A stretch of 64,000 nt of DNA from assembly GCF_019668465.1 (NCBI RefSeq), contig NZ_AP024828.1:4960001-5024000 (forward strand). The letters are read 5' to 3'. How positions within the stretch are numbered: the first letter of the stretch is position 1; each line of letters starts with the position of its first letter. The position numbers and the translations under genes are program-made. Under the pieces are notes generated by a model that was given only the letters and a program-made list of their open reading frames with translations, made no database searches and was not told the origin of the DNA. The stretch comes from Mycobacterium senriense. GTDB taxonomy: Bacteria > Actinomycetota > Actinomycetes > Mycobacteriales > Mycobacteriaceae. Below are positions 23,660 to 33,442 of the stretch, piece after piece.

Positions 23660-25144
23660 ATGAGTCACGTGACAGCCCCGACGGACAGCGCTCCCGCGCA
23701 GTTCCTGGCAAGTAGCCACACCTCTTTGATGCATGGCTGGGTGCCGGCGACGATCCAGGTGCTCGCGGCCGTGGTGCTGACATTGGCGGTCGGCTGGCGG
23801 TCGCGCCGCTGGCGCACGGTGTGGATGCCGGCCGCCGCGCTGGCCGGCGGGGTCACGGCCTACCTGACGCACTGGTACATCGTCGACCGCGGGCTCTCCG
23901 ACGACCCCGCCCCGGCCGCCCTGTGGCTCTGGGTCACGCTGACCGGCATGGCGGCGGCGGTGCTGGTGCTGGGCTGGAGCACCGCGCGCCGCTGGCGGCG
24001 CGGCGCCGCGGTGCTGGCCGTGCCGCTGTGCGTGCTCAGCACCGCGCTGATGCTCAACGTCTGGGTGGGCTACTTCCCCACCGTGCAGTCGGCGTGGAGC
24101 CAGCTGACGTCGGGCCCGCTGCCCGATCAAACCGATCGGGCCACCGTTACCGCGATGGCCGCCCGCCGAATCCGGCCACCGCACGGCACGGTGGTGCCGG
24201 TGGCGATCCCCTCGGATGGATCGCACTTCAAACACCGCGGTGAGCTGGTCTACCTGCCGCCCGAATGGTTCGCGACCACCCCACCTCCGCCGTTGCCGAC
24301 CGTGATGATGATCGGCGGGCAGTTCAACACGCCGGCGGACTGGACGCGTGCGGGCAACGCGGTCAAGACGATCGACGATTTCGCCGCCGCGCATGACGGC
24401 AAGGCGCCGGTGCTGGTGTTCGTGGATTCCGGCGGCGCCTTCAACAACGACACCGAATGCGTCAACGGGGTTCGGGGCAACGCGGCCGACCACCTGACCA
24501 AAGATGTTGTGCCGTTTATGATTTCGAGTTTCGGGGTCAGCCCGCACCGGGCCAACTGGGGCGTAGCGGGCTGGTCCATGGGCGGGACCTGCGCGGTGGA
24601 CCTGACCGTCATGCACCCCGACATGTTCAGCGCGTTCGTCGACGTGGCAGGCGATTTCTTCCCGAACGCCGGCACCAAGTCCCAAACCATCGCCAGGCTG
24701 TTCGGCGGAAACGCCGACGCCTGGGCGACTTTCGATCCGACGACGGTGATCAACCGGCACGGCCCTTACCGCGACGTGGCCGGCTGGTTCGCGATCTCGT
24801 CCGACGGCCCGCCCAGCCCACGCCGCGACCTCCAGCTCAGCGACAGCGGCGCCATCCGGCTCGCCGGACGCGAGGCGGCCGCCAATCCCGGCAACCAGAC
24901 CGCCGCCGCCTATTCGCTGTGTGCGCTCGGCCGCTCCGCGGGAATCGACTGCGCGGTGGTGCCGCAGCCCGGCAAGCACGACTGGCCCTTCGCGGACCGC
25001 GTGTTCGCGGCCTCGCTGCCCTGGCTCGCCGGGGAGCTCGGCACCCCGGGAATTCCGCGGACGCCGCTGCCCACCGCGTCCGCGCCCACCGTGGGTGCCC
25101 CGGTGGTCGTCCCGGCCGAGCGTTCCAACACCGCCAAGCGATAG
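23660..25144 (+). CDS. Membrane-anchored alpha/beta-hydrolase esterase (Rv1639c-like)
   Basis: The 494-residue protein has four N-terminal membrane helices (about 25-150) and then an esterase D/antigen-85-type alpha/beta-hydrolase domain facing the periplasm. The nucleophile elbow is GWSMGGT and the catalytic histidine lies in GKHDWPFA; an acid residue is expected near PGNQTAA. Together with a GQFNTPADW oxyanion region this suggests an acyl hydrolase or acyltransferase on a cell-envelope lipid. It lies 77 bases downstream of lysX on the same strand, as in M. tuberculosis. The substrate is unknown. Confidence 0.85.
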   Translation: MSHVTAPTDSAPAQFLASSHTSLMHGWVPATIQVLAAVVLTLAVGWRSRRWRTVWMPAAALAGGVTAYLTHWYIVDRGLSDDPAPAALWLWVTLTGMAAAVLVLGWSTARRWRRGAAVLAVPLCVLSTALMLNVWVGYFPTVQSAWSQLTSGPLPDQTDRATVTAMAARRIRPPHGTVVPVAIPSDGSHFKHRGELVYLPPEWFATTPPPPLPTVMMIGGQFNTPADWTRAGNAVKTIDDFAAAHDGKAPVLVFVDSGGAFNNDTECVNGVRGNAADHLTKDVVPFMISSFGVSPHRANWGVAGWSMGGTCAVDLTVMHPDMFSAFVDVAGDFFPNAGTKSQTIARLFGGNADAWATFDPTTVINRHGPYRDVAGWFAISSDGPPSPRRDLQLSDSGAIRLAGREAAANPGNQTAAAYSLCALGRSAGIDCAVVPQPGKHDWPFADRVFAASLPWLAGELGTPGIPRTPLPTASAPTVGAPVVVPAERSNTAKR

Positions 25145-25149
25145 CGCCC

Positions 25150-25569
25150 GTGCTGTCCGTCGCGCGGGTTCGGCGCGCCGTTTTCGCGCGGCACTGCCAT
25201 CCGTTCAGCGCATGGACCCGGTGGGCCAGCACGCCGCTGATCCTGATCCCGGTCTGGACGCGGCGACGGGCCCACGCGGCGTGGATTGCGTTGTGGCTGG
25301 CCGTGAATCCCGTGGTCTTCGGCAAGCCGGCGCATCACCGCGCATGGTCGACGCGGGCGATGCTGGGCGAAGAGCTGTGGATCAGCCGTCGACCCCGCGA
25401 CGCGGCGATGGTGGTCAGCGCGGCGACGTCGGCGGCCGCGCTGGTGGCGCTGGTCGCCGCGCGCCGGCATCGGCTGCACCCGGCGCTGATCGCCGTCGTG
25501 GTGCAGATGGCGCTCACGCTGGTGTACTGGCAACAGATGGTCCGGTACTTCGAGCGCCGATCGCGCTAG
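25150..25569 (+). CDS. DUF6653 family small membrane protein
   Basis: The GTG at 25150, five bases after the esterase stop, opens a 139-residue protein. It has the DUF6653 pattern: an ARHCHPFSAWTRW start, a helix pair, AVNPVVFGKP and a W/Y-rich C-terminal helix ending in VYWQQMVRYFE. Three to four short membrane helices are expected. Tight spacing suggests one transcript with the upstream esterase. Function is unknown. Confidence 0.72.
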   Translation: MLSVARVRRAVFARHCHPFSAWTRWASTPLILIPVWTRRRAHAAWIALWLAVNPVVFGKPAHHRAWSTRAMLGEELWISRRPRDAAMVVSAATSAAALVALVAARRHRLHPALIAVVVQMALTLVYWQQMVRYFERRSR

Positions 25570-25646
25570 CGGGCTAGGGCTCCGTCTGCGACCTCCGCCC
25601 CTCGTGCGGAACGCAAACGCTCGAATCGATACGCACTCTACGGTGA

Positions 25647-25666
25647 TCCGATATCCACGTATCGGA
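25647..25666. promoter_or_regulatory. Probable TetR operator
   Basis: TCCGATA-N6-TATCGGA is a perfect inverted repeat 26 bases upstream of the favoured TetR-family start. It overlaps the expected -35 region of the promoter whose -10 box is TATATT at 25679-25684. Such placement is typical of TetR autorepression. Confidence 0.75.
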
Positions 25667-25678
25667 ATGCGGTGCGGG

Positions 25679-25695
25679 TATATTGTCCGGCCGTG
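25679..25695 (+). promoter_or_regulatory. Candidate leaderless promoter of the TetR gene
   Basis: TATATT at 25679-25684 is followed after eight bases by GTG at 25693. That is the spacing expected if transcription starts on the GTG itself, a common arrangement in mycobacteria. No Shine-Dalgarno sequence is seen. Confidence 0.6.
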
Positions 25696-26340
25696 GGATC
25701 CACCCGGCTGTTTCCGTATGACCCGCCCCCGCCAGCAGGGCCCTCCCCCAAGGAGCGAATTCGCGACGCCGCGCTGAGCTGCTTTGCTGTTCGCGGCATC
25801 GCCGCCACGACGCTGCGCGCGATCGCGGAGACCGCGGAGGTTTCGATTGGGCTGGTGCAGCACCACTTTCGTACCAAGGCCGCGCTAGCCGCCGCAGTCG
25901 ATCAGTACGTCCTGCAGGTGGTAAGCGAGGCTTTGGAACCCACAACGTTGCCCGACCCCCCCTCCGACGGGCTCAACGCGGCCGGGCGCCAACTGACAGC
26001 ACTTATGGTCGAACGACCCGACGTGATGACCTATCTCGGTCGCGCGCTTGCCGAGGGCGGCGCATTGGGTTCGGTAATCTTCACCGGGCTGTTGGGGATC
26101 AGCACGGCCCAGCGCGATGAGTTCTCCCGACGGAACAACATCCACCCCGACCTCGATCCCGATTGGGCTGCGCTCAACCCGCTGATCCTGCGTGTCGGCG
26201 CGATCATTCTGCATCCGTACATCGAGCTATACCTGCGGGAATCTTTCTTTACCGAGCCGCAATTGCGCCGCTGGGATGCAGCCGTCACCAACCTCATACG
26301 GCACGGGCAATTCCTCGACGAATCGACACCTCGGCGTTGA
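25693..26340 (+). CDS. TetR-family transcriptional regulator
   Basis: The protein has a TetR DNA-binding domain: KERIRDAALSCFAVRGIAAT with recognition helix SIGLVQHHFRTK. A helical ligand-binding domain of about 150 residues follows. A start at GTG 25693 (215 residues) fits the -10 box; GTG 25672 would add seven residues. It precedes the MoeY-like and c-di-GMP genes on the same strand. In M. tuberculosis Rv1353c (TetR), Rv1354c (GGDEF-EAL) and Rv1355c (MoeY) sit together, so this looks like the same functional set, rearranged. The inducer is unknown. Confidence 0.88.
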   Translation: MGSTRLFPYDPPPPAGPSPKERIRDAALSCFAVRGIAATTLRAIAETAEVSIGLVQHHFRTKAALAAAVDQYVLQVVSEALEPTTLPDPPSDGLNAAGRQLTALMVERPDVMTYLGRALAEGGALGSVIFTGLLGISTAQRDEFSRRNNIHPDLDPDWAALNPLILRVGAIILHPYIELYLRESFFTEPQLRRWDAAVTNLIRHGQFLDESTPRR

Positions 26341-26407
26341 TCTTGCGCTACACAAACCGGCTCAAACCCGGTCCGGCTCGCCGCCCAGGTGCTATACACA
26401 TAGCACC

Positions 26408-28534
26408 ATGGATGAGCCCGGCGTAATCGCCTACACCGCGGAGATTCTCGACGCTGCTGAGGCGCACGGCGAGTTGGTGTTGCGGCGATTACACGCCGAT
26501 CCCAGCGTGGAGTTCATCGACCGGCTCGATGCACAGACAGCCAACCTGCGTAGCCTGCGGCCCAGCCCGCATCCTGAGCTTCTGACAGAGCCCGGCCGCT
26601 GGGCCTACTACCCGTGGCGGCGCGCGGTTGTGGCGGTGCTGGGCCCGCGCGGATATCGCGCTGTACGCCTGGACCGCAATCGCAATAACATAACTCCGGC
26701 GGAACAGGACCGGCTGAGCGCACTGCGCGTCGGCGTTGCCGGTCTCAGCGTCGGCCACGTCATCGCGCACACCGTGGCGGCCCAGGGATTGTGTGGCCGC
26801 CTTCGGCTGGCTGACTTTGATCATCTCGAGCTATCGAACCTGAATCGGGTGCCTGCCAGCGTGTTCGACCTTGGCGTCAATAAAGCTTGCGTGGCGGCGC
26901 GCAGGATCGCCGAGCTCGACCCGTACCTACCGGTGGAGGTGTTTGACGCCGGACTGACCTTCGATACCGTCGACGCATTTTTGGACGGGCTCGACATCGT
27001 CATCGAAGAATGCGATTCACTGGATATGAAGGCGGTCTTGCGGGAAGGCGCCCGCAGCCGTCGCATTCCGGTGTTGATGGCGACCAGCGATCGCGGCCTG
27101 ATCGATGTGGAGCGTTTCGATCAACAGCCTCACCGACCGATTCTGCATGGTCTGCTCGGCGACCTCGACATCGGATTATTGCCCGGCATGAGCAGCCGCG
27201 AGAAGGTCCCCCACATCCTGCGTCACCTTGAGGCCGAACGTCTTTCACCCCGGACGGCTGCCTCATTGTTAGAGATCGACCGCACGGTGTCGACCTGGCC
27301 GCAGGTGGCCTCGGATGTCGTGCTGGGGGCGTCGGCGTTGGCCGAGGGCGTGCGCAGAATTGGGCTCGGCGAAGAGCTTCGCTCGGGCCGTACTCGCATC
27401 GACATCGGCTGGGCGCTCGACCAACTCCGTGACCCCGACATGGCCAGGCACCACCCCGCGCCGGTAGACCATCCCGAGCCACCGGAACTACCCGGGATCG
27501 CCGGAGTCGTCGCCGCCGCGGCGATCCGCGCACCTTCCGGGGGAAACGTTCAGCCCTGGTGTGTCCAAGCCGGACCTACCGAGATCACCATCGATATTGC
27601 CGCGCAACACACGTCGACAATGGACGTCGGATTCCGGGGCAGCGCTGTCGCAGTGGGGGCTGCCCTCTTGAACGCCAGGATCGCCGCCGCGGCTCACCAC
27701 GTTCTGGGCCCCGTCAGCCTCACCGAAATTGGCAACGGATCGCCGCTGCGCGCCACACTGAAATTGAGCGACGGCACCGACCCCGACCTTGCCGATCTCT
27801 ATCAACCGATGCTCGAGCGCGAAACCAACCGCCACCATGGCAGCCCCCGGCCGATCGGCGCCGCCACTATCGAGGCGCTGCGCGCCGCGGCGAAACGGGA
27901 AGGCGCGCATTTACACCTCATCACCGACAGAGACGACATCGCGCATGCGGCAACAATTCTTGCCGCGTCCGACCGCACCCGCTACCTGACGCCGCAGCTG
28001 CACAAAGAGATGGTCTCCGAACTGCGCTGGCCCGGTGATGCCGACCCCGACACCGGCATCGACGTGCGCAGTCTGGAACTCGACACCGGAGATCTGGCGA
28101 TGCTCGATATCCTGCGCCGCACCGACGTCATGACCCATTTGGCCCAATGGAACGCCGGCAGCGCCCTCGGTGAAGACGCCCGGGACCGGGTATTAGCCAG
28201 TTCTGCGCTGGCCGCGGTCTCCGTACCGGGACAGGACCTTCGCGACTACGCCAGGGGAGGAGCGGCTGTTGAGTTGGTCTGGATCATTGCGCAGCGGCAA
28301 GGGCTTTCCGTGCAGCCGGTCTCGCCGGTCTTCCTGTACGCCCACAACCAAACCGAATTCGGCGAGCTGTCAACCCAATTCGCGAATGAGCTAAAGCAAT
28401 TGCAGCGCGACTTCCGAAGTTTGGCAGGCATACCTTCCGAACATTCCGCGGTGCTGGTACTCCGGTTCACTGCCGGTCCACCGGCATCGGTACCAAGCCG
28501 CCGCAATTTTGACCGCGGACGGGTGCTTCGTTGA
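26408..28534 (+). CDS. ThiF/E1-like plus nitroreductase fusion protein (MoeY/Rv1355c-like)
   Basis: The 708-residue protein has an N-terminal E1/ThiF-type adenylation domain (about 95-340). Its nucleotide loop is GVAGLSVG (109-116), with the acidic end of strand 2 at ADFDH, Asn144/Arg147 and Lys159. The C-terminal half (about 355-700) is nitroreductase-like, starting with the FMN-binding stretch AAIRAPSGGNVQPW. No zinc CxxC pairs or obvious conjugating cysteine are seen in the E1 part. The MoeY name implies a link to molybdopterin that is not shown by the sequence; modification of a small molecule or peptide by adenylation plus flavin redox is equally possible. It lies 67 bases after the TetR gene. 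Confidence 0.82.
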   Translation: MDEPGVIAYTAEILDAAEAHGELVLRRLHADPSVEFIDRLDAQTANLRSLRPSPHPELLTEPGRWAYYPWRRAVVAVLGPRGYRAVRLDRNRNNITPAEQDRLSALRVGVAGLSVGHVIAHTVAAQGLCGRLRLADFDHLELSNLNRVPASVFDLGVNKACVAARRIAELDPYLPVEVFDAGLTFDTVDAFLDGLDIVIEECDSLDMKAVLREGARSRRIPVLMATSDRGLIDVERFDQQPHRPILHGLLGDLDIGLLPGMSSREKVPHILRHLEAERLSPRTAASLLEIDRTVSTWPQVASDVVLGASALAEGVRRIGLGEELRSGRTRIDIGWALDQLRDPDMARHHPAPVDHPEPPELPGIAGVVAAAAIRAPSGGNVQPWCVQAGPTEITIDIAAQHTSTMDVGFRGSAVAVGAALLNARIAAAAHHVLGPVSLTEIGNGSPLRATLKLSDGTDPDLADLYQPMLERETNRHHGSPRPIGAATIEALRAAAKREGAHLHLITDRDDIAHAATILAASDRTRYLTPQLHKEMVSELRWPGDADPDTGIDVRSLELDTGDLAMLDILRRTDVMTHLAQWNAGSALGEDARDRVLASSALAAVSVPGQDLRDYARGGAAVELVWIIAQRQGLSVQPVSPVFLYAHNQTEFGELSTQFANELKQLQRDFRSLAGIPSEHSAVLVLRFTAGPPASVPSRRNFDRGRVLR

Positions 28535-28646
28535 GCGGTCCCCTGCTGATGCACCACTTATGGATTCGGAGTCTGTTTGGCGCGCAGACCCATGACCCAG
28601 TACGCAATGTCGGCGCAGCCCACGACTTGAAGCTACGGTAAGGGCA

Positions 28647-30515
28647 ATGTCGGGCACGCTAGATTATTTGGTCACCGCGGCCGCCGCAGAGTTGATGGCA
28701 GCCACCGCGGCTAACTCTGCCGCGATTAGTCAACGAGTGCTCGGCGACTTGGTCCGCGAATTGGCTGTGGACTTTAGCTTCCTGCGCCACAACGATCACA
28801 CGATCCACGCCACGGTGCTCGTCGCCGAGTGGCCGCCACGCAACGCCGACCCCGACCCGATCGGCGTCATCTATTTCTCCGACGCCGACTCCGTCTTCGC
28901 CCAGGCCGAGCACCTCAAAGTGCCGCAAGTCGTGCGTCCCGCGCCGGCGAATGCCGACTATCAACGCAATATCGACGAGGGCACCGGGTGGGGCACCGTC
29001 TCCCTGGCCGCCGTGCCGCTGCTGTCTGGCGATGTAACGACCGGCACGCTGGCCTTCGGCAAGGTCGGAGACCGCGAATGGCTGCCCGAAGAGCTCAACG
29101 CGGTGCAGGCGATCGCCGCGCTCTTCGCCCAATTGCAGGCCCGGGTCGTCGCCGAAGAGCAGATCCACTACCTGGCTGAGCACGACGAACTCACTGGGTT
29201 GCTGAACCGCAGGGCGCTCATCGCCTACCTCGACAAGCGGCTGGCCGAGGGACAGCCGGGTCCGGTCTCAGTAGTGTTCGTCTCACTCGACCGCTTCAAA
29301 GTCATCAATGACCGCCTCGGCCAAGACGCCGGCGACCGGTTCATCGTGGCCTTCGCCGCGCTGCTGCGCGAGGCCACCGATGCCGTCCCCACGGTCATTG
29401 CGCGTTTCGGCGGTGACGAGTTTGTCGTCGTGCCGACCGTGCCCATGGACGTCGAGGCTGCCGAAGCATTCGGTCGGTCGCTGCACAACCAGGTTCACGG
29501 ACAAGTCTCAATCGACGGCGAGATGCTCAGTCGTACCGTCAGTATCGGCGTCGCAGCCGGCCTACCCGGACACGAGAGCACGTCGGACCTACTGCGTCGA
29601 GTCGACCAGGCCACCCGGTCAGCTAAGGGTTCCGGCGGCAACAAACTCGCAACCTTCAGTCCGGAGATGTCTACGACAGACATGATCCGCAACGACATCG
29701 AATTGCACCTGGACGGAACGATCGATAGCGGTATCGGGACCTTAGTGCTCCACTACTTGCCGGAGTTCGACATGAATACCGGCGCCATCCTCGGTACCGA
29801 GGCGCTAATCCGTTGGCAACATCCGACTCTGGGGTTATTGATGCCCGATTCGTTCATTCAGGTCGTGGAATCGATCAACCTCGGTGCCAAACTCGGCCGT
29901 CTCGTAATGCGTTCCGCGTGTGCGCAGTTTGGGCTCTGGCAATCACGCGGCGTCGGACATGGCACGGTGCTACGTGTCAACGTATCGCCGGTGCAGCTTG
30001 TCACAGATGGTATTGTCGCTGCCGTCGCAGCCACCCTCGACGAGTTTAGTCTCGATCCCAGCACCGTATGTCTGGAGATCACCGAAAGTGTTGTGGTTCA
30101 AGATATCGACGCCACACGCAAAACATTGTTCGGATTGAAGGATATCGGCGTACAGATCGCCATCGATGACTTCGGCACCGGATACAGTGTGCTGACGTAT
30201 CTGAAATCTCTGCCCGTCGACGCACTTAAGATCGACAAGGGGTTTGTCCGCAGTCTCGATACCAACGCCGGTGATCTGGCGATCGTGCGCTCGACGATGG
30301 CCCTGGCCGAGGCCTTCGGGCTCGAGGTCGTCGCCGAAGGGGTCGAAACCGTGGCCGCAGCCAAGACGCTGCTCAGCCTCGGTTGCCATCGCGCACAAGG
30401 CTTTCTGCTGTCCCGCCCGCTGGACAACGCGGCGATGGAGTCGCTCTTGATCAAACGCGTCGTCCCGATTAACTTCTCCGACACGGGGTCTTCTGGAATA
30501 GGCAACTCGTTGTAG
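28647..30515 (+). CDS. GAF-GGDEF-EAL bifunctional c-di-GMP enzyme (Rv1354c-like)
   Basis: The 622-residue cytosolic protein has a GAF-like sensor (about 20-170), a GGDEF diguanylate cyclase domain with intact RFGGDEF (GGDEF 255-259), and an EAL phosphodiesterase domain with GTEALIRW (EAL 385-387), NVSP, EITES, IDDFGTGYS (DDFG 507-510), LKIDKGF and AEGVET. Both active sites appear complete, so it could make and degrade c-di-GMP. The RxxD product-inhibition site normally just upstream of GGDEF is absent. Length and domain order match M. tuberculosis Rv1354c. It is 112 bases after the MoeY-like gene. Confidence 0.92.
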   Translation: MSGTLDYLVTAAAAELMAATAANSAAISQRVLGDLVRELAVDFSFLRHNDHTIHATVLVAEWPPRNADPDPIGVIYFSDADSVFAQAEHLKVPQVVRPAPANADYQRNIDEGTGWGTVSLAAVPLLSGDVTTGTLAFGKVGDREWLPEELNAVQAIAALFAQLQARVVAEEQIHYLAEHDELTGLLNRRALIAYLDKRLAEGQPGPVSVVFVSLDRFKVINDRLGQDAGDRFIVAFAALLREATDAVPTVIARFGGDEFVVVPTVPMDVEAAEAFGRSLHNQVHGQVSIDGEMLSRTVSIGVAAGLPGHESTSDLLRRVDQATRSAKGSGGNKLATFSPEMSTTDMIRNDIELHLDGTIDSGIGTLVLHYLPEFDMNTGAILGTEALIRWQHPTLGLLMPDSFIQVVESINLGAKLGRLVMRSACAQFGLWQSRGVGHGTVLRVNVSPVQLVTDGIVAAVAATLDEFSLDPSTVCLEITESVVVQDIDATRKTLFGLKDIGVQIAIDDFGTGYSVLTYLKSLPVDALKIDKGFVRSLDTNAGDLAIVRSTMALAEAFGLEVVAEGVETVAAAKTLLSLGCHRAQGFLLSRPLDNAAMESLLIKRVVPINFSDTGSSGIGNSL

Positions 30516-30551
30516 ACCCGCACGAAGCGACAACCCTTTGCTGACCGGCGG

Positions 30552-31163
30552 TCAAGGGCGGCGTTGAAACAGGTAGTAATACGTCGCGGTCTTGTCGTCG
30601 AGTTCCCGCTCGTTGCCGGTGGTCAGCAGTTTCCAGCCGGGAGCGAATCGTCGTTCGATCTCGGCGTGATCAATGCCCGGCACCCCGAACCGGCCACCGG
30701 GAGGGAACGCGACAATGAATAGCCGCGTATCGGGCGCCGCCACGGCGGTGATCTCCCGGACGTAGGCCTCACGATCGGCGCCACTCATGTTGTGGATGCA
30801 CCCGTTATCGACGATCAAGTCAAAGCCCGTACCGATTCCGGATTGACTCAACTGGGTGACGTCAGCACGGACAAAATTGACCGGAACCTTGGCGGCGCCG
30901 GCCTTGGTCCGCGCCTTGTCGAGCGGCTTTGCGACGTAGTCAACCCCGGTGACCCTCCAGCCCTGCTGAGCAAGGTAGATGGCGCAATCCCCGGTGCCGC
31001 ATCCCACGTCGAGAGCCGATCCCTGGCGCAATGCCGGGGTCTCCGCGCTTCCCTCGACCAGATCTCGCAGACCCTGCCCGATCGGATGGCCCTCCCACGG
31101 CGTGAAGCCAACCCGATAGAAGAACCGAAATCGCATGTGTCGAGAAGCCATAGCCGCAATCAT
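30552..31163 (-). CDS. Class I SAM-dependent methyltransferase
   Basis: This 203-residue protein has methyltransferase motif I ALDVGCGTGDCAIYLA (from residue 50), the acidic loop GVDYVAKPLDKA and motif post-I FVRADVT. The VDNGCIHNM segment resembles thiopurine- or small-molecule-type methyltransferases. In-frame ATGs at 31151 and 31136 are alternative starts; no clear ribosome binding site decides. It is the last gene of a three-gene minus-strand unit with the P450 and GNAT-like genes, so a tailoring methylation is plausible. The substrate is unknown. Confidence 0.85.
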   Translation of the reverse strand: MIAAMASRHMRFRFFYRVGFTPWEGHPIGQGLRDLVEGSAETPALRQGSALDVGCGTGDCAIYLAQQGWRVTGVDYVAKPLDKARTKAGAAKVPVNFVRADVTQLSQSGIGTGFDLIVDNGCIHNMSGADREAYVREITAVAAPDTRLFIVAFPPGGRFGVPGIDHAEIERRFAPGWKLLTTGNERELDDKTATYYYLFQRRP

Positions 31164-31239
31164 GGCATTCGCGACAACTTGCCGGTCCCCACCCCGCCGG
31201 CAGGTGCGGCACCGCGTCAGGACTTAGGCAACGGAAAAG

Positions 31240-32610
31240 TTACTGACGTAGTCGTATCTTGGCCCTGATCGGAGCCGCCGCGACCATTGTGAAGGGCACG
31301 GCCAGCGGGAATTCTTCGGAAAGAGACTCGATTTCGACTCGGCGCACGATGGTCGCCAACGCGAGGGTGGCTTCCAGCATCGCGAAGTGGTCCCCGATAC
31401 ACGAGCGCGGCCCGCCCCCGAACGGAACGTACTGCCAACGGTCGCGACCGTCAGCGCGCTCGGGACTGAACCGGTCCGGATCGAATCGCAGCGTATCGTC
31501 CCACAGGCCCGGGTCGGTTTGTACCGCCATCCTTCCGAACGCCAGCATGGTGCCGGCTTTGACGCGGTAGCCGGCGACTTCTACATCGCGCGTCGCCATT
31601 CGGGTTCCGGTCGGGCCCGGTGGGCACAGCCGCAGCGCCTCCTGAAGTACACGGACGGTAAAGCCCAGCCGCGCAACGTCGTCGGGAGTGAGTTGGCGAT
31701 TTGGTAGGCGGGCGGCTTCGGCCGCGACGCGCTGCTGGAAGTCCGGGTGGCGACCCAGCGCCCACAGCGCGTAGGTCAGAGTCGTCGCCGTCGTGTCGTG
31801 GCCGGCGAACAAAAAAATGATCATTTCGTCGCGGATCTCGTTGTCCGACAACGATAGCCCGGTCTCTGGATCGGTGGCGGCGATTAGCGCGTGTACCAGC
31901 GGAGCCTCCCGCTCGGGGTCGGCACGACACGCTTGCAAAATCTCGTCGGCCAGCCTGCGAATCGCCGCGGCCGCAGCGCGGGCACGCCGACGCGCCGGTG
32001 TGGGCATCCACTCCGGTGCGCGCACCGGCCGCAGCGCGCGCCGTACCGCGTAACTCGTCGCCACGCGCAGCGGCTCGGCGATCGCATCGGAGCGCTCGTC
32101 GAGATCCAAACCTAATACCGAGCGACCCAGTGCCCGCAACGTCAGCGTGCGGCATTGCGCGTCCAGATCGATCTCGGCGCCGTCGCGCCACTGGGCACGC
32201 ACGATCTCCGCGGCCTCGGCCATGTGCCCACCGAACTGGCGGACCCGCTGGCGGGTGAACACCGGTTGAAGGGTGCGTCGGCGCGGCAACCACTCCGAGT
32301 GAGGCAAGACGAACAGGTTTCCGCCAAGCAGCCGACGAAGCTCGGTGGACACCGTGCTGGTCTTGTCGACCGAACCGTCTCTCACACTGACGATGTCGCG
32401 GATACCTTGTGGTGACGTCGCCAAAACGATCGGCGGGATCAGCCACTTCGGCCCCAAGGTAACCCGAGTGACAGGCCCGCCGGCATCGCGGAGTTTGTTG
32501 GTGCCGGTATGGAATTCCCTGATGGCCTTCAGTCGGTCCCGATACGGAAGCGGGTTTTTCGGGGCCAACGGCAGCGCTGCAACGTCGCGCGCGGGCTCAG
32601 CGATGGACAC
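31240..32610 (-). CDS. Cytochrome P450
   Basis: The 456-residue P450 has the I-helix AGHDTT (269-274), K-helix EALR (324-327), the PERF-region equivalent FDPDRFSPER and haem loop FGGGPRSCIG with ligand Cys404. There is no membrane anchor, as usual for bacterial P450s. The I-helix and meander look closer to the eukaryote-like fatty-acyl/terpenoid class than to camphor-type enzymes, but I cannot assign a CYP family. It starts 29 bases after the GNAT-like gene and ends 76 bases before the methyltransferase. Electron donors are not encoded nearby. Confidence 0.93.
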   Translation of the reverse strand: MSIAEPARDVAALPLAPKNPLPYRDRLKAIREFHTGTNKLRDAGGPVTRVTLGPKWLIPPIVLATSPQGIRDIVSVRDGSVDKTSTVSTELRRLLGGNLFVLPHSEWLPRRRTLQPVFTRQRVRQFGGHMAEAAEIVRAQWRDGAEIDLDAQCRTLTLRALGRSVLGLDLDERSDAIAEPLRVATSYAVRRALRPVRAPEWMPTPARRRARAAAAAIRRLADEILQACRADPEREAPLVHALIAATDPETGLSLSDNEIRDEMIIFLFAGHDTTATTLTYALWALGRHPDFQQRVAAEAARLPNRQLTPDDVARLGFTVRVLQEALRLCPPGPTGTRMATRDVEVAGYRVKAGTMLAFGRMAVQTDPGLWDDTLRFDPDRFSPERADGRDRWQYVPFGGGPRSCIGDHFAMLEATLALATIVRRVEIESLSEEFPLAVPFTMVAAAPIRAKIRLRQ

Positions 32611-32639
32611 GAGTCGACCCTAGAACACTTTGATTTCTG

Positions 32640-33356
32640 CTACGCCGAGATGCGGCTGAGGATTTCGGCGTTCTCGGCGCACATCAGCTTGAATTGTGCC
32701 GGCTCGGCATGTGTGGAAAGGGTGCGACGATCCCACCACATCACCTTGGTCCGGTAGTCCTCCGTGGGATAGGCCGTCGCCGGTACGCGGTTGGCCACAA
32801 CGCCCCCGGAGGACTGCCACTGCTCCAGCACGTGAGCCGCCGCGGTGGCCATCACGAACTGAACACCCAGCAAAGTCATCATCGGCAGCGCGGTGCGGGC
32901 CAGCACGGTGGACAGCGCGCGGTTGCCATATTCGCGAGAATTGGTCCACGCGCCTTTCACCTCCACGACGCCAAACGGAAGCCGGTTGGAGATCATATGG
33001 CGCAGCAACGGAAGACCTGGGTTGCCGTTCCATTCCTCGAGAGCGTGGGAGTCCTCCGGCGAGCGCAAAGGCCCGACAACGCGCGTACCTCCGACGACTC
33101 GCCCGTCTGGGTCGAGCGCAGCAAAAAACAAGGATGTGTCGGCTCCATCCTGCACCTGGTCGAGGTCGAGCACCCAGTCCAGCCCGTGCCGGCGATAGCT
33201 GTTCAGCGCGCCATCTAGGTACTCATCCCACAGATCGGGCTCCGCGGCCGGCGTCGCCGCGGTGACCCAGCACCCCGTCGCATGATCGCGCCAACCAAAC
33301 CCCGATTCCGAGCACGGACCGTCAATCCCGAGCTTCGTGATTTGCATCGCTTCCAT
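32640..33356 (-). CDS. GNAT-fold protein, tentatively LuxI/FeeM-like N-acyltransferase
   Basis: I do not recognise a close family. The 238 residues fit the layout of acyl-homoserine-lactone/N-acyl-amino-acid synthases. There is an N-terminal YRRHGLDW-type segment, a core strand-turn FFAALDPDGRVVGGTRVVGPL (compare the VVGxxRLLPT region of LuxI), a strand with a conserved Glu (VVEVKGAW), and a C-terminal GVQFVMATAAAHVLEQW helix preceding a small-Gly turn. The classical ESR triplet is not preserved. A GGAGG ribosome binding site precedes the ATG at 33356. It heads the unit with the P450 and methyltransferase. Another GNAT role is possible. Confidence 0.5.
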   Translation of the reverse strand: MEAMQITKLGIDGPCSESGFGWRDHATGCWVTAATPAAEPDLWDEYLDGALNSYRRHGLDWVLDLDQVQDGADTSLFFAALDPDGRVVGGTRVVGPLRSPEDSHALEEWNGNPGLPLLRHMISNRLPFGVVEVKGAWTNSREYGNRALSTVLARTALPMMTLLGVQFVMATAAAHVLEQWQSSGGVVANRVPATAYPTEDYRTKVMWWDRRTLSTHAEPAQFKLMCAENAEILSRISA

Positions 33357-33379: not shown

Positions 33380-33442
33380 TTACTAACGAGTAATTTTTTG
33401 AACGGCTCTGAATCGTTTGTTAATTGACTCGCGACAAATTAA
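33380..33442. promoter_or_regulatory. AT-rich upstream region with two inverted repeats
   Basis: In a 68% GC genome this stretch upstream of the GNAT-like gene is unusually AT-rich. It holds TTACT-N4-AGTAA (33380-33393) and a longer near-palindrome at 33420-33442, with TTAATT and AATTAA arms around a central TCGCGA. These are plausible operators and promoter elements for the minus-strand unit, and the composition suggests horizontal origin or silencing by a nucleoid protein. Confidence 0.5.

What the first reader, a model, noticed from the sequence alone, without database searches (positions are those of the whole stretch)
30552..33356. Compact acyltransferase-like / P450 / methyltransferase unit, a possible small-molecule cluster
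Three minus-strand genes (GNAT-fold LuxI/FeeM-like protein, P450, SAM methyltransferase; gaps of 29 and 76 bases) sit in an accessory block not found at this place in M. tuberculosis. The first gene has the layout of acyl-homoserine-lactone or N-acyl-amino-acid synthases. Acylation, oxidation and methylation would be a minimal route to a lipid signal or surfactant. Seen: the genes and motifs. Inferred: the fold of the first gene and the joint pathway.
Basis: partly seen in the sequence, partly recalled or inferred. Interest (0 to 1): 0.7.

Follow-up and report, generated by a model that had tools for sequence, protein, structure and literature searches.

The report
Tailored mycobacterial tryptazolone-type gene cluster
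This stretch of a mycobacterial genome looks like an enlarged version of a recently described pathway that makes small acylated amino-acid rings, with an extra oxidase and methylase, and closely related strains seem to swap this version for other versions at the same spot.

Summary
The three minus-strand genes are real and lie where stated. So this is a trz-type N-acyl oxazolone cluster with tailoring genes.

All 39 trz-linked P450s tested fall in one 42-row clade; none of 31 rows outside is linked. Methyltransferase-like genes occur in 24 of 37 P450-bearing trz loci and 3 of 81 others. Neither oxazolone paper searched mentions P450 or methyltransferase.

New here: from the trzA stop codon to the next gene (about 25585-32639) the block is replaced by a plain trzS-GGDEF cassette in close relatives. 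Cassette types scatter over the trzA tree as by chance, slightly less so over a uvrA tree. Product, tailoring order and any signalling role are inferred.

The parts
32640..33356 (-). TrzA-type N-acyl amino acid synthase (FeeM/LuxI-like GNAT fold)
   Evidence: AlphaFold2 model pLDDT 87.8; FeeM and LasI top in VIA-align; BjaI and FeeM top in Foldseek; M. tuberculosis homologue P0107 57% identical over 88%
31240..32610 (-). cytochrome P450 of a trz-linked clade; proposed tailoring oxidase
   Evidence: Pfam PF00067; 42-row clade holds all 39 trz-linked P450s of the tree; motifs intact; the other three matches in the own genome are 27-28% identical
30552..31163 (-). class I SAM methyltransferase; proposed tailoring methylase (start may be 12 bases further in, inferred)
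   Evidence: Pfam PF13649; copies of 78% identity or more in 9 genomes including the own, in the trz stretch in all 9
28647..30515 (+). GAF-GGDEF-EAL c-di-GMP enzyme, usual neighbour of trzS
   Evidence: Pfam GGDEF, EAL, GAF; GGDEF and EAL motifs present; such a gene in 107 of 117 fetched TrzS stretches
26192..28534 (+). TrzS-type ThiF cyclase fused to FMN oxidase (longest ORF; true start probably near 26408, inferred)
   Evidence: NCBIfam PRK07877 'Rv1355c family protein' 1045 bits, cut-off 476; D275 and R597 in 107 of 107 aligned
25672..26340 (+). TetR-family regulator upstream of trzS, same strand
   Evidence: Pfam PF00440
25647..25666 (.). perfect dyad TCCGATA-N6-TATCGGA before tetR; candidate autoregulatory operator
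   Evidence: only exact match in the window; with up to 3 mismatches 3 matches against 1.02 expected by chance, none of them before trzA; upstream sequences
25586..32639 (.). exchangeable cassette (tetR, trzS, GGDEF-EAL, methyltransferase, P450), replaced by about 4 kb of plain trzS-GGDEF in L031, L034 and L039
   Evidence: collinearity breaks at 32640 and at 25584/25585/25567; near junction aligned for L031 and L034, far junction for L031, L034 and, less clearly, L039

Best explanation
The locus is a tailored trz-type (N-acyl oxazolone) biosynthetic cluster. TrzA transfers an acyl group from acyl-CoA to an aromatic amino acid, probably tryptophan; TrzS cyclises it with ATP and desaturates it with FMN and O2 to an N-acyl oxazolone. 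Those steps were shown by others for homologues and are inferred here. The P450 then probably hydroxylates the product or its precursor, and the methyltransferase probably methylates the new oxygen or a ring atom; both steps and their order are inference. TetR and the GGDEF-EAL enzyme would tie production to regulation and c-di-GMP. The block downstream of trzA is an exchangeable cassette, so close relatives would make plain or differently decorated products from the same acyl-amino-acid precursor.
For: Fold: FeeM and LuxI-type synthases lead the structure comparisons. Orthology: the M. tuberculosis homologue P0107 is 74-75% identical to TrzA genes that sit beside trzS in two 3.27-Mb genomes. 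TrzS: NCBIfam Rv1355c family far above cut-off; residues matching the published D217 and R540 (assigned by motif and spacing) are kept in 107 of 107, Q651 in 86 of 107. Linkage: of 117 TrzS stretches, TrzA lies within 8 kb in 98, a GGDEF-EAL within 1.5 kb in 89, a P450 within 5 kb in 36; three have trzA-P450-trzS-GGDEF on one strand (L099, L101, L125). The P450 tree puts all 39 linked rows in one clade (100/98), with 3 unlinked rows in it and none of 31 outside linked. Methyltransferase with P450: 24 of 37 against 3 of 81. Published parallel: Stieleria has N-acyl amino acid synthase genes near a methyltransferase, a ThiF and a nitroreductase gene (PMC12479983, passages seen; in one of the two species the authors thought that methyltransferase the less likely one).
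Against: No product is known for this genome. trzA and trzS are on opposite strands and not adjacent, and no shared operator was found. 81 of 118 trz loci lack the P450, and 13 of 37 P450 loci lack a methyltransferase by my profile (some of these stretches are short). 15 of the 36 P450-bearing TrzS stretches have no trzA within 8 kb (my count; L067, L094 and L180 among them lie at a contig end). Fisher tests ignore relatedness. Three P450s in the linked clade are not linked: L190 and L191 lie on contigs of 4.6 and 8.0 kb, L219 is a second copy in one genome. Three P450s of 67% identity (L184-L186) lie just outside the clade and one of 66% (L187) further out; none is linked.
Confidence: 0.7

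Rival explanations
1. TrzA here is a true LuxI-like synthase that uses SAM and acyl-CoA to make an acyl-homoserine lactone signal, and the P450 and methyltransferase modify it.
For: BjaI and LasI are among the closest folds.
Against: FeeM ranks as high; the characterised homologue acylates L-tryptophan (PMC12856293); the usual partner TrzS acts on acyl-amino acids and would have no use for a lactone (inference).
Confidence: 0.06
2. The P450 and methyltransferase are a separate detoxification pair that merely sits beside the trz genes.
For: Among solved structures the methyltransferase also matches the heterocyclic toxin methyltransferase Rv0560c (7bgg, E 1.8e-11, fifth of 17); both genes are optional in trz loci.
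Against: The P450 clade is trz-linked in many gene orders, one of them between trzA and trzS; three dissimilar methyltransferase types occur in P450-bearing trz loci.
Confidence: 0.17
3. The cassette differences are old losses and rearrangements inherited down lineages, not exchange between strains.
For: Within one cassette type, silent-site divergence roughly follows the flanking genes; on the uvrA tree the labels are slightly clustered (12 changes against 14.7 shuffled, 53 of 1000 as low).
Against: Gene-precise junctions; sister rows with different cassettes on the uvrA tree and labels scattered on the trzA tree; the window and L032 differ less inside the cassette (0.03-0.07) than at uvrA (0.12) and trzA (0.11), though the short usp and mbl genes are also low (0.03, 0.06).
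Confidence: 0.15

Closest known systems
trzAS tryptazolone pathway (Rv1356c-Rv1355c; PMC12856293, text parts 1-4 of 7 read, and a term search of the main text)
   Same: Homologous acyltransferase and ThiF-oxidase fusion, catalytic residues kept, beside a c-di-GMP gene
   Different: Here trzS is on the other strand, and a P450, a methyltransferase and a TetR gene are part of the block; the paper's main text mentions neither P450 nor methyltransferase
tyzACB tyrazolone pathway (PMC10404671, passages seen) and oxzAB (as described in PMC12856293)
   Same: Acyltransferase, ThiF cyclase and flavin oxidase logic
   Different: tyz has separate ThiF and oxidase genes; no P450 or methyltransferase in the main text of PMC10404671
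Stieleria stieleriacine loci (PMC12479983, passages seen)
   Same: N-acyl amino acid synthase genes near methyltransferase, ThiF and nitroreductase genes
   Different: Planctomycetes; no P450 in the main text; no acyl-oxazolone observed for those compounds
FeeM N-acyl amino acid synthase and LuxI-type synthases (BjaI, LasI)
   Same: Predicted fold of the first gene
   Different: Only 9-19% identity over the structural alignments; a ThiF-oxidase partner is not known to me for FeeM or LuxI (recalled)

Membership tests
TrzA / N-acyl amino acid synthase | FeeM/LuxI-like GNAT fold | tested here: met
   (a plain GNAT is tied in Z with LasI, over fewer residues)
TrzA / N-acyl amino acid synthase | N-acylates an aromatic amino acid with acyl-CoA | not testable with these tools
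   shown for Rv1356c and homologues in PMC12856293, not for this protein
TrzS (Rv1355c family) | ThiF domain fused to Acg-type FMN oxidase | tested here: met
   PRK07877 1045 bits; ThiF stretch 161-299, Rv3131_FMN_oxido 441-723 at 110 bits, under that model's cut-off of 199
TrzS (Rv1355c family) | residues whose change blocks cyclase and desaturase (D217, R540 in M. smegmatis) | tested here: met
   D275 and R597 in 107 of 107; matched by motif and spacing, the M. smegmatis sequence itself was not identified
trzAS cluster | acyltransferase and ThiF-oxidase genes in one cluster | tested here: met
   4.1 kb apart in one block
trzAS cluster | trzA directly upstream of trzS as a putative operon | tested here: not met
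   opposite strands with P450, methyltransferase and GGDEF-EAL between; hence filed as a variant
LuxI acyl-homoserine lactone synthase | a LuxI-type sequence model in Pfam | tested here: not met
   no such match for the window protein (E<=1) or any of 65 family members (E<=5)
LuxI acyl-homoserine lactone synthase | SAM as acyl acceptor | not testable with these tools
   not assayed
dedicated trz tailoring P450 | one clade that holds the trz-linked P450s | tested here: met
   42-row clade 100/98 holding 39 of 39 linked rows and 3 unlinked

The most novel reading that the evidence does not exclude
The locus is a chemotype-switching locus: trzA stays fixed while alternative downstream cassettes, each with its own trzS and c-di-GMP enzyme, are exchanged gene-precisely among close relatives and kept as a long-lived shared polymorphism, as for the signal types of a cell-cell signalling system. 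Different strains would then send differently decorated oxazolones.
Probability: 0.22. Interest if true: 0.85.

Novelty: new variant of a known kind. Interest (0 to 1): 0.62.

Why it matters
PMC12856293 calls the physiological role of oxazolones a major unresolved question. A P450 and methyltransferases tied to the pathway predict undetected, decorated products and give a substrate class for a clade of uncharacterised P450s. A locus at which close relatives carry different product cassettes gives natural comparison strains and suggests selection for difference between strains, a testable lead towards a signalling or antagonistic role.

Tried and rejected
Sequence searches for the fold of the first gene gave nothing: Pfam and NCBIfam, PDB by sequence, PDB by profile, Pfam on 65 members; only structure prediction settled it. 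A shared operator for the TetR arm and the trzA arm was looked for and not found; a first alignment was unreadable. Literature, held open-access library only: no paper with 7wzl, the nearest solved P450; no paper with five of the terms Rv1355c, trzS, nitroreductase, cytochrome P450, methyltransferase, gene cluster; oxazolone and ThiF terms with P450 gave two papers, both with no 'cytochrome P450'; a wider listing showed the same papers among unrelated ones; 'tryptazolone' is in one paper. Listings on LuxI in mycobacteria, signal-type polymorphism and accessory P450s with c-di-GMP in the M. avium complex showed nothing on this locus; those papers were not opened. Methyltransferase family 'MT1' merges two types by single linkage (30% identical), so I count methyltransferases by profile; the narrower family count is 24 of 37 against 1 of 81.

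Full report
What is there. The three reported genes are open, intact and exactly placed. Next to them, on the other strand, the same block holds a GGDEF-EAL gene (28647-30515), a 780-aa ORF of the Rv1355c family (26192-28534) and a TetR gene (25672-26340). The nearest named relatives by trzA are M. colombiense E1334, 852002-51834 and NS-7390 (93-94%).

What it is. A literature search for Rv1354c-Rv1357c led to PMC12856293 (text parts 1-4 of 7 read; term search of the main text): Rv1356c (TrzA) acylates L-tryptophan with short acyl-CoAs, and TrzS (Rv1355c; in vitro the M. smegmatis enzyme) cyclises and desaturates the product to an N-acyl tryptazolone. The authors could not detect tryptazolones in M. 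tuberculosis itself, only in M. smegmatis and R. jostii. They note neighbouring c-di-GMP genes. Neither that paper nor the earlier tyz paper, PMC10404671 (passages), mentions P450 or methyltransferase in the main text. That P0107 is Rv1356c is inferred from this, not read from a label.

Neighbourhoods. The same 198 congeneric genomes were searched: TrzA matches in 116 (E<=1e-3, a few weak or partial), TrzS in 113 (E<=1e-60), the P450 in 124 (E<=1e-130, match list cut off), the methyltransferase in 62 (E<=1e-50). I fetched 117 TrzS stretches (four partial second pieces were left out), 15 stretches around P450 hits without trzS nearby and 20 more of lower identity. In the 117 TrzS stretches, TrzA lies within 8 kb in 98, GGDEF-EAL within 1.5 kb in 89 and P450 within 5 kb in 36; 66 are plain trzA-trzS-GGDEF on one strand. 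GGDEF-EAL occurs somewhere in 107 of 117, against 2 of 33 control stretches, there at 34-37% identity. So GGDEF-EAL is the usual companion and the P450 an optional one.

The P450. In a tree of 73 rows (39 trz-linked including the window, 34 not, one of these a 26% outgroup), all 39 linked rows fall in one 42-row clade (100/98). The three unlinked rows inside are two on contigs of 4.6 and 8.0 kb and one second copy. None of the 31 rows outside is linked. I chose the lower-identity rows by hand down the ranking, and hits below about 57% were not fetched. In an order-wide sample of 249 genomes, two genomes not in the first sample (G397, G404) had P450 matches of 67% or more, and both lie beside trzS; 15 genomes outside the genus have trzS, of which one (G273) has a P450 match (E<=1e-110), at 51% and far from its trzS; another outside genome (G342) has a 59% P450 and no trzS. 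In this sample the tailored form looks like a mycobacterial elaboration.

The methyltransferase. Copies at 78% identity or more occur in 9 genomes including the own, all in trz stretches; the lower matches (72% or less) I did not place one by one, apart from what the profile below finds. With a profile built from the methyltransferases of trz loci, 24 of 37 P450-bearing trz loci have a class I methyltransferase-like gene, against 3 of 81 others (Fisher p 1e-12, not corrected for relatedness). One of the three, L070, has a P450 of the clade on another contig of its genome (L191). The three types are 30% alike over 155 residues, 28% over 87, and without a significant match for the third pair, which favours a shared role over shared descent. 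A dienelactone hydrolase also recurs (12 of 37 against 1 of 81).

TrzS. A quick tree of 111 sequences puts all 32 P450-linked TrzS in one clade of 40 (support 0.84), the window's in a 22-row subclade of which 21 are P450-linked. The P450 therefore goes with a subtype of TrzS.

The cassette. L031 (M. colombiense E1334), L034 (M. vulneris) and L039 (M. arosiense) are collinear with the window apart from small gaps (94-97% identical in L031 and L034, 87-89% in L039) up to window base 32640, the last base of the trzA stop codon, and again from about base 25585; between these they hold plain trzS and GGDEF genes in the orientation of trzA (about 65% identical DNA where blastn aligns it). The junctions are at the trzA stop codon (aligned in L031 and L034) and about 16 bases past the stop of what is probably the neighbouring gene (24457-25569 ORF); the far junction in L039 is less clear. 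L032 and L033, also named M. colombiense, have the window's type. The library holds one genome per GTDB species, so these are close sister species under GTDB though they share a name.

Scatter of cassette types. I sorted 30 named loci and the window by rule into P450 after trzA (APM, 11), P450 between GGDEF and trzS (SPb, 11), plain (5), no P450 (2), unknown (2). Without L048 the trzA tree needs 9 changes for APM against 9.2 by shuffling, 9 against 9.2 for SPb, 5 against 4.8 for plain; well-supported branches force at least 5, 5 and 3. On a uvrA tree of 29 rows the total is 12 against 14.7 (53 of 1000 shuffles as low), so there is slight clustering; neighbours with different cassettes include the window with L031/L034 (support 0.84), L051 with L052 (both named M. 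interjectum, 0.90) and L041 with L047 (1.0). Silent-site divergence within a type roughly follows the flanks, which suggests old types shared across species. The window and L032 differ by 0.03-0.07 in the cassette, 0.12 in uvrA and 0.11 in trzA, but the small usp and mbl genes differ by only 0.03 and 0.06, so recent exchange is suggested, not proved.

Mechanism and its standing. Shown by others in homologues: acylation, cyclisation, desaturation. Shown here: presence, catalytic residues, linkage, cassette replacement. Inferred: substrate of this TrzA, P450 hydroxylation, methylation, order, link to c-di-GMP and any signal role. Regulation: a perfect dyad precedes tetR but has no counterpart before trzA, so one regulon for both arms is not supported.

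Noticed in passing
L050 10193-11263 (-): A further GGDEF protein lies between P450 and methyltransferase, on the other strand; similar gaps are seen in L038, L045, L052 and L054 but were not read.
   Followed up: partly
L084 12807-17553: P450-type trz locus with dienelactone hydrolase, methyltransferase, GGDEF-EAL and an EAL-DICT protein in a row; a hydrolase could open the oxazolone ring.
   Followed up: partly
P0095: An M. avium subsp. avium entry has only a 148-aa trzA homologue (59% of the query covered), perhaps a shortened gene or a start-site choice.
   Followed up: no
L048 8001-8714: trzA of M. lepraemurium has an internal stop, and its trzS and GGDEF matches are partial, so this cluster seems to be decaying there.
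   Followed up: no
G000:C1:2854411-2855016: Second methyltransferase of the same family (70% identical) elsewhere in the own genome, with one TGA reported in the match.
   Followed up: no
window 33420-33442: AT-rich inverted repeat TTAATTtgtcgcgagtcAATTAA in the trzA upstream region, partly kept in the closest relatives; possible operator of a different regulator.
   Followed up: no
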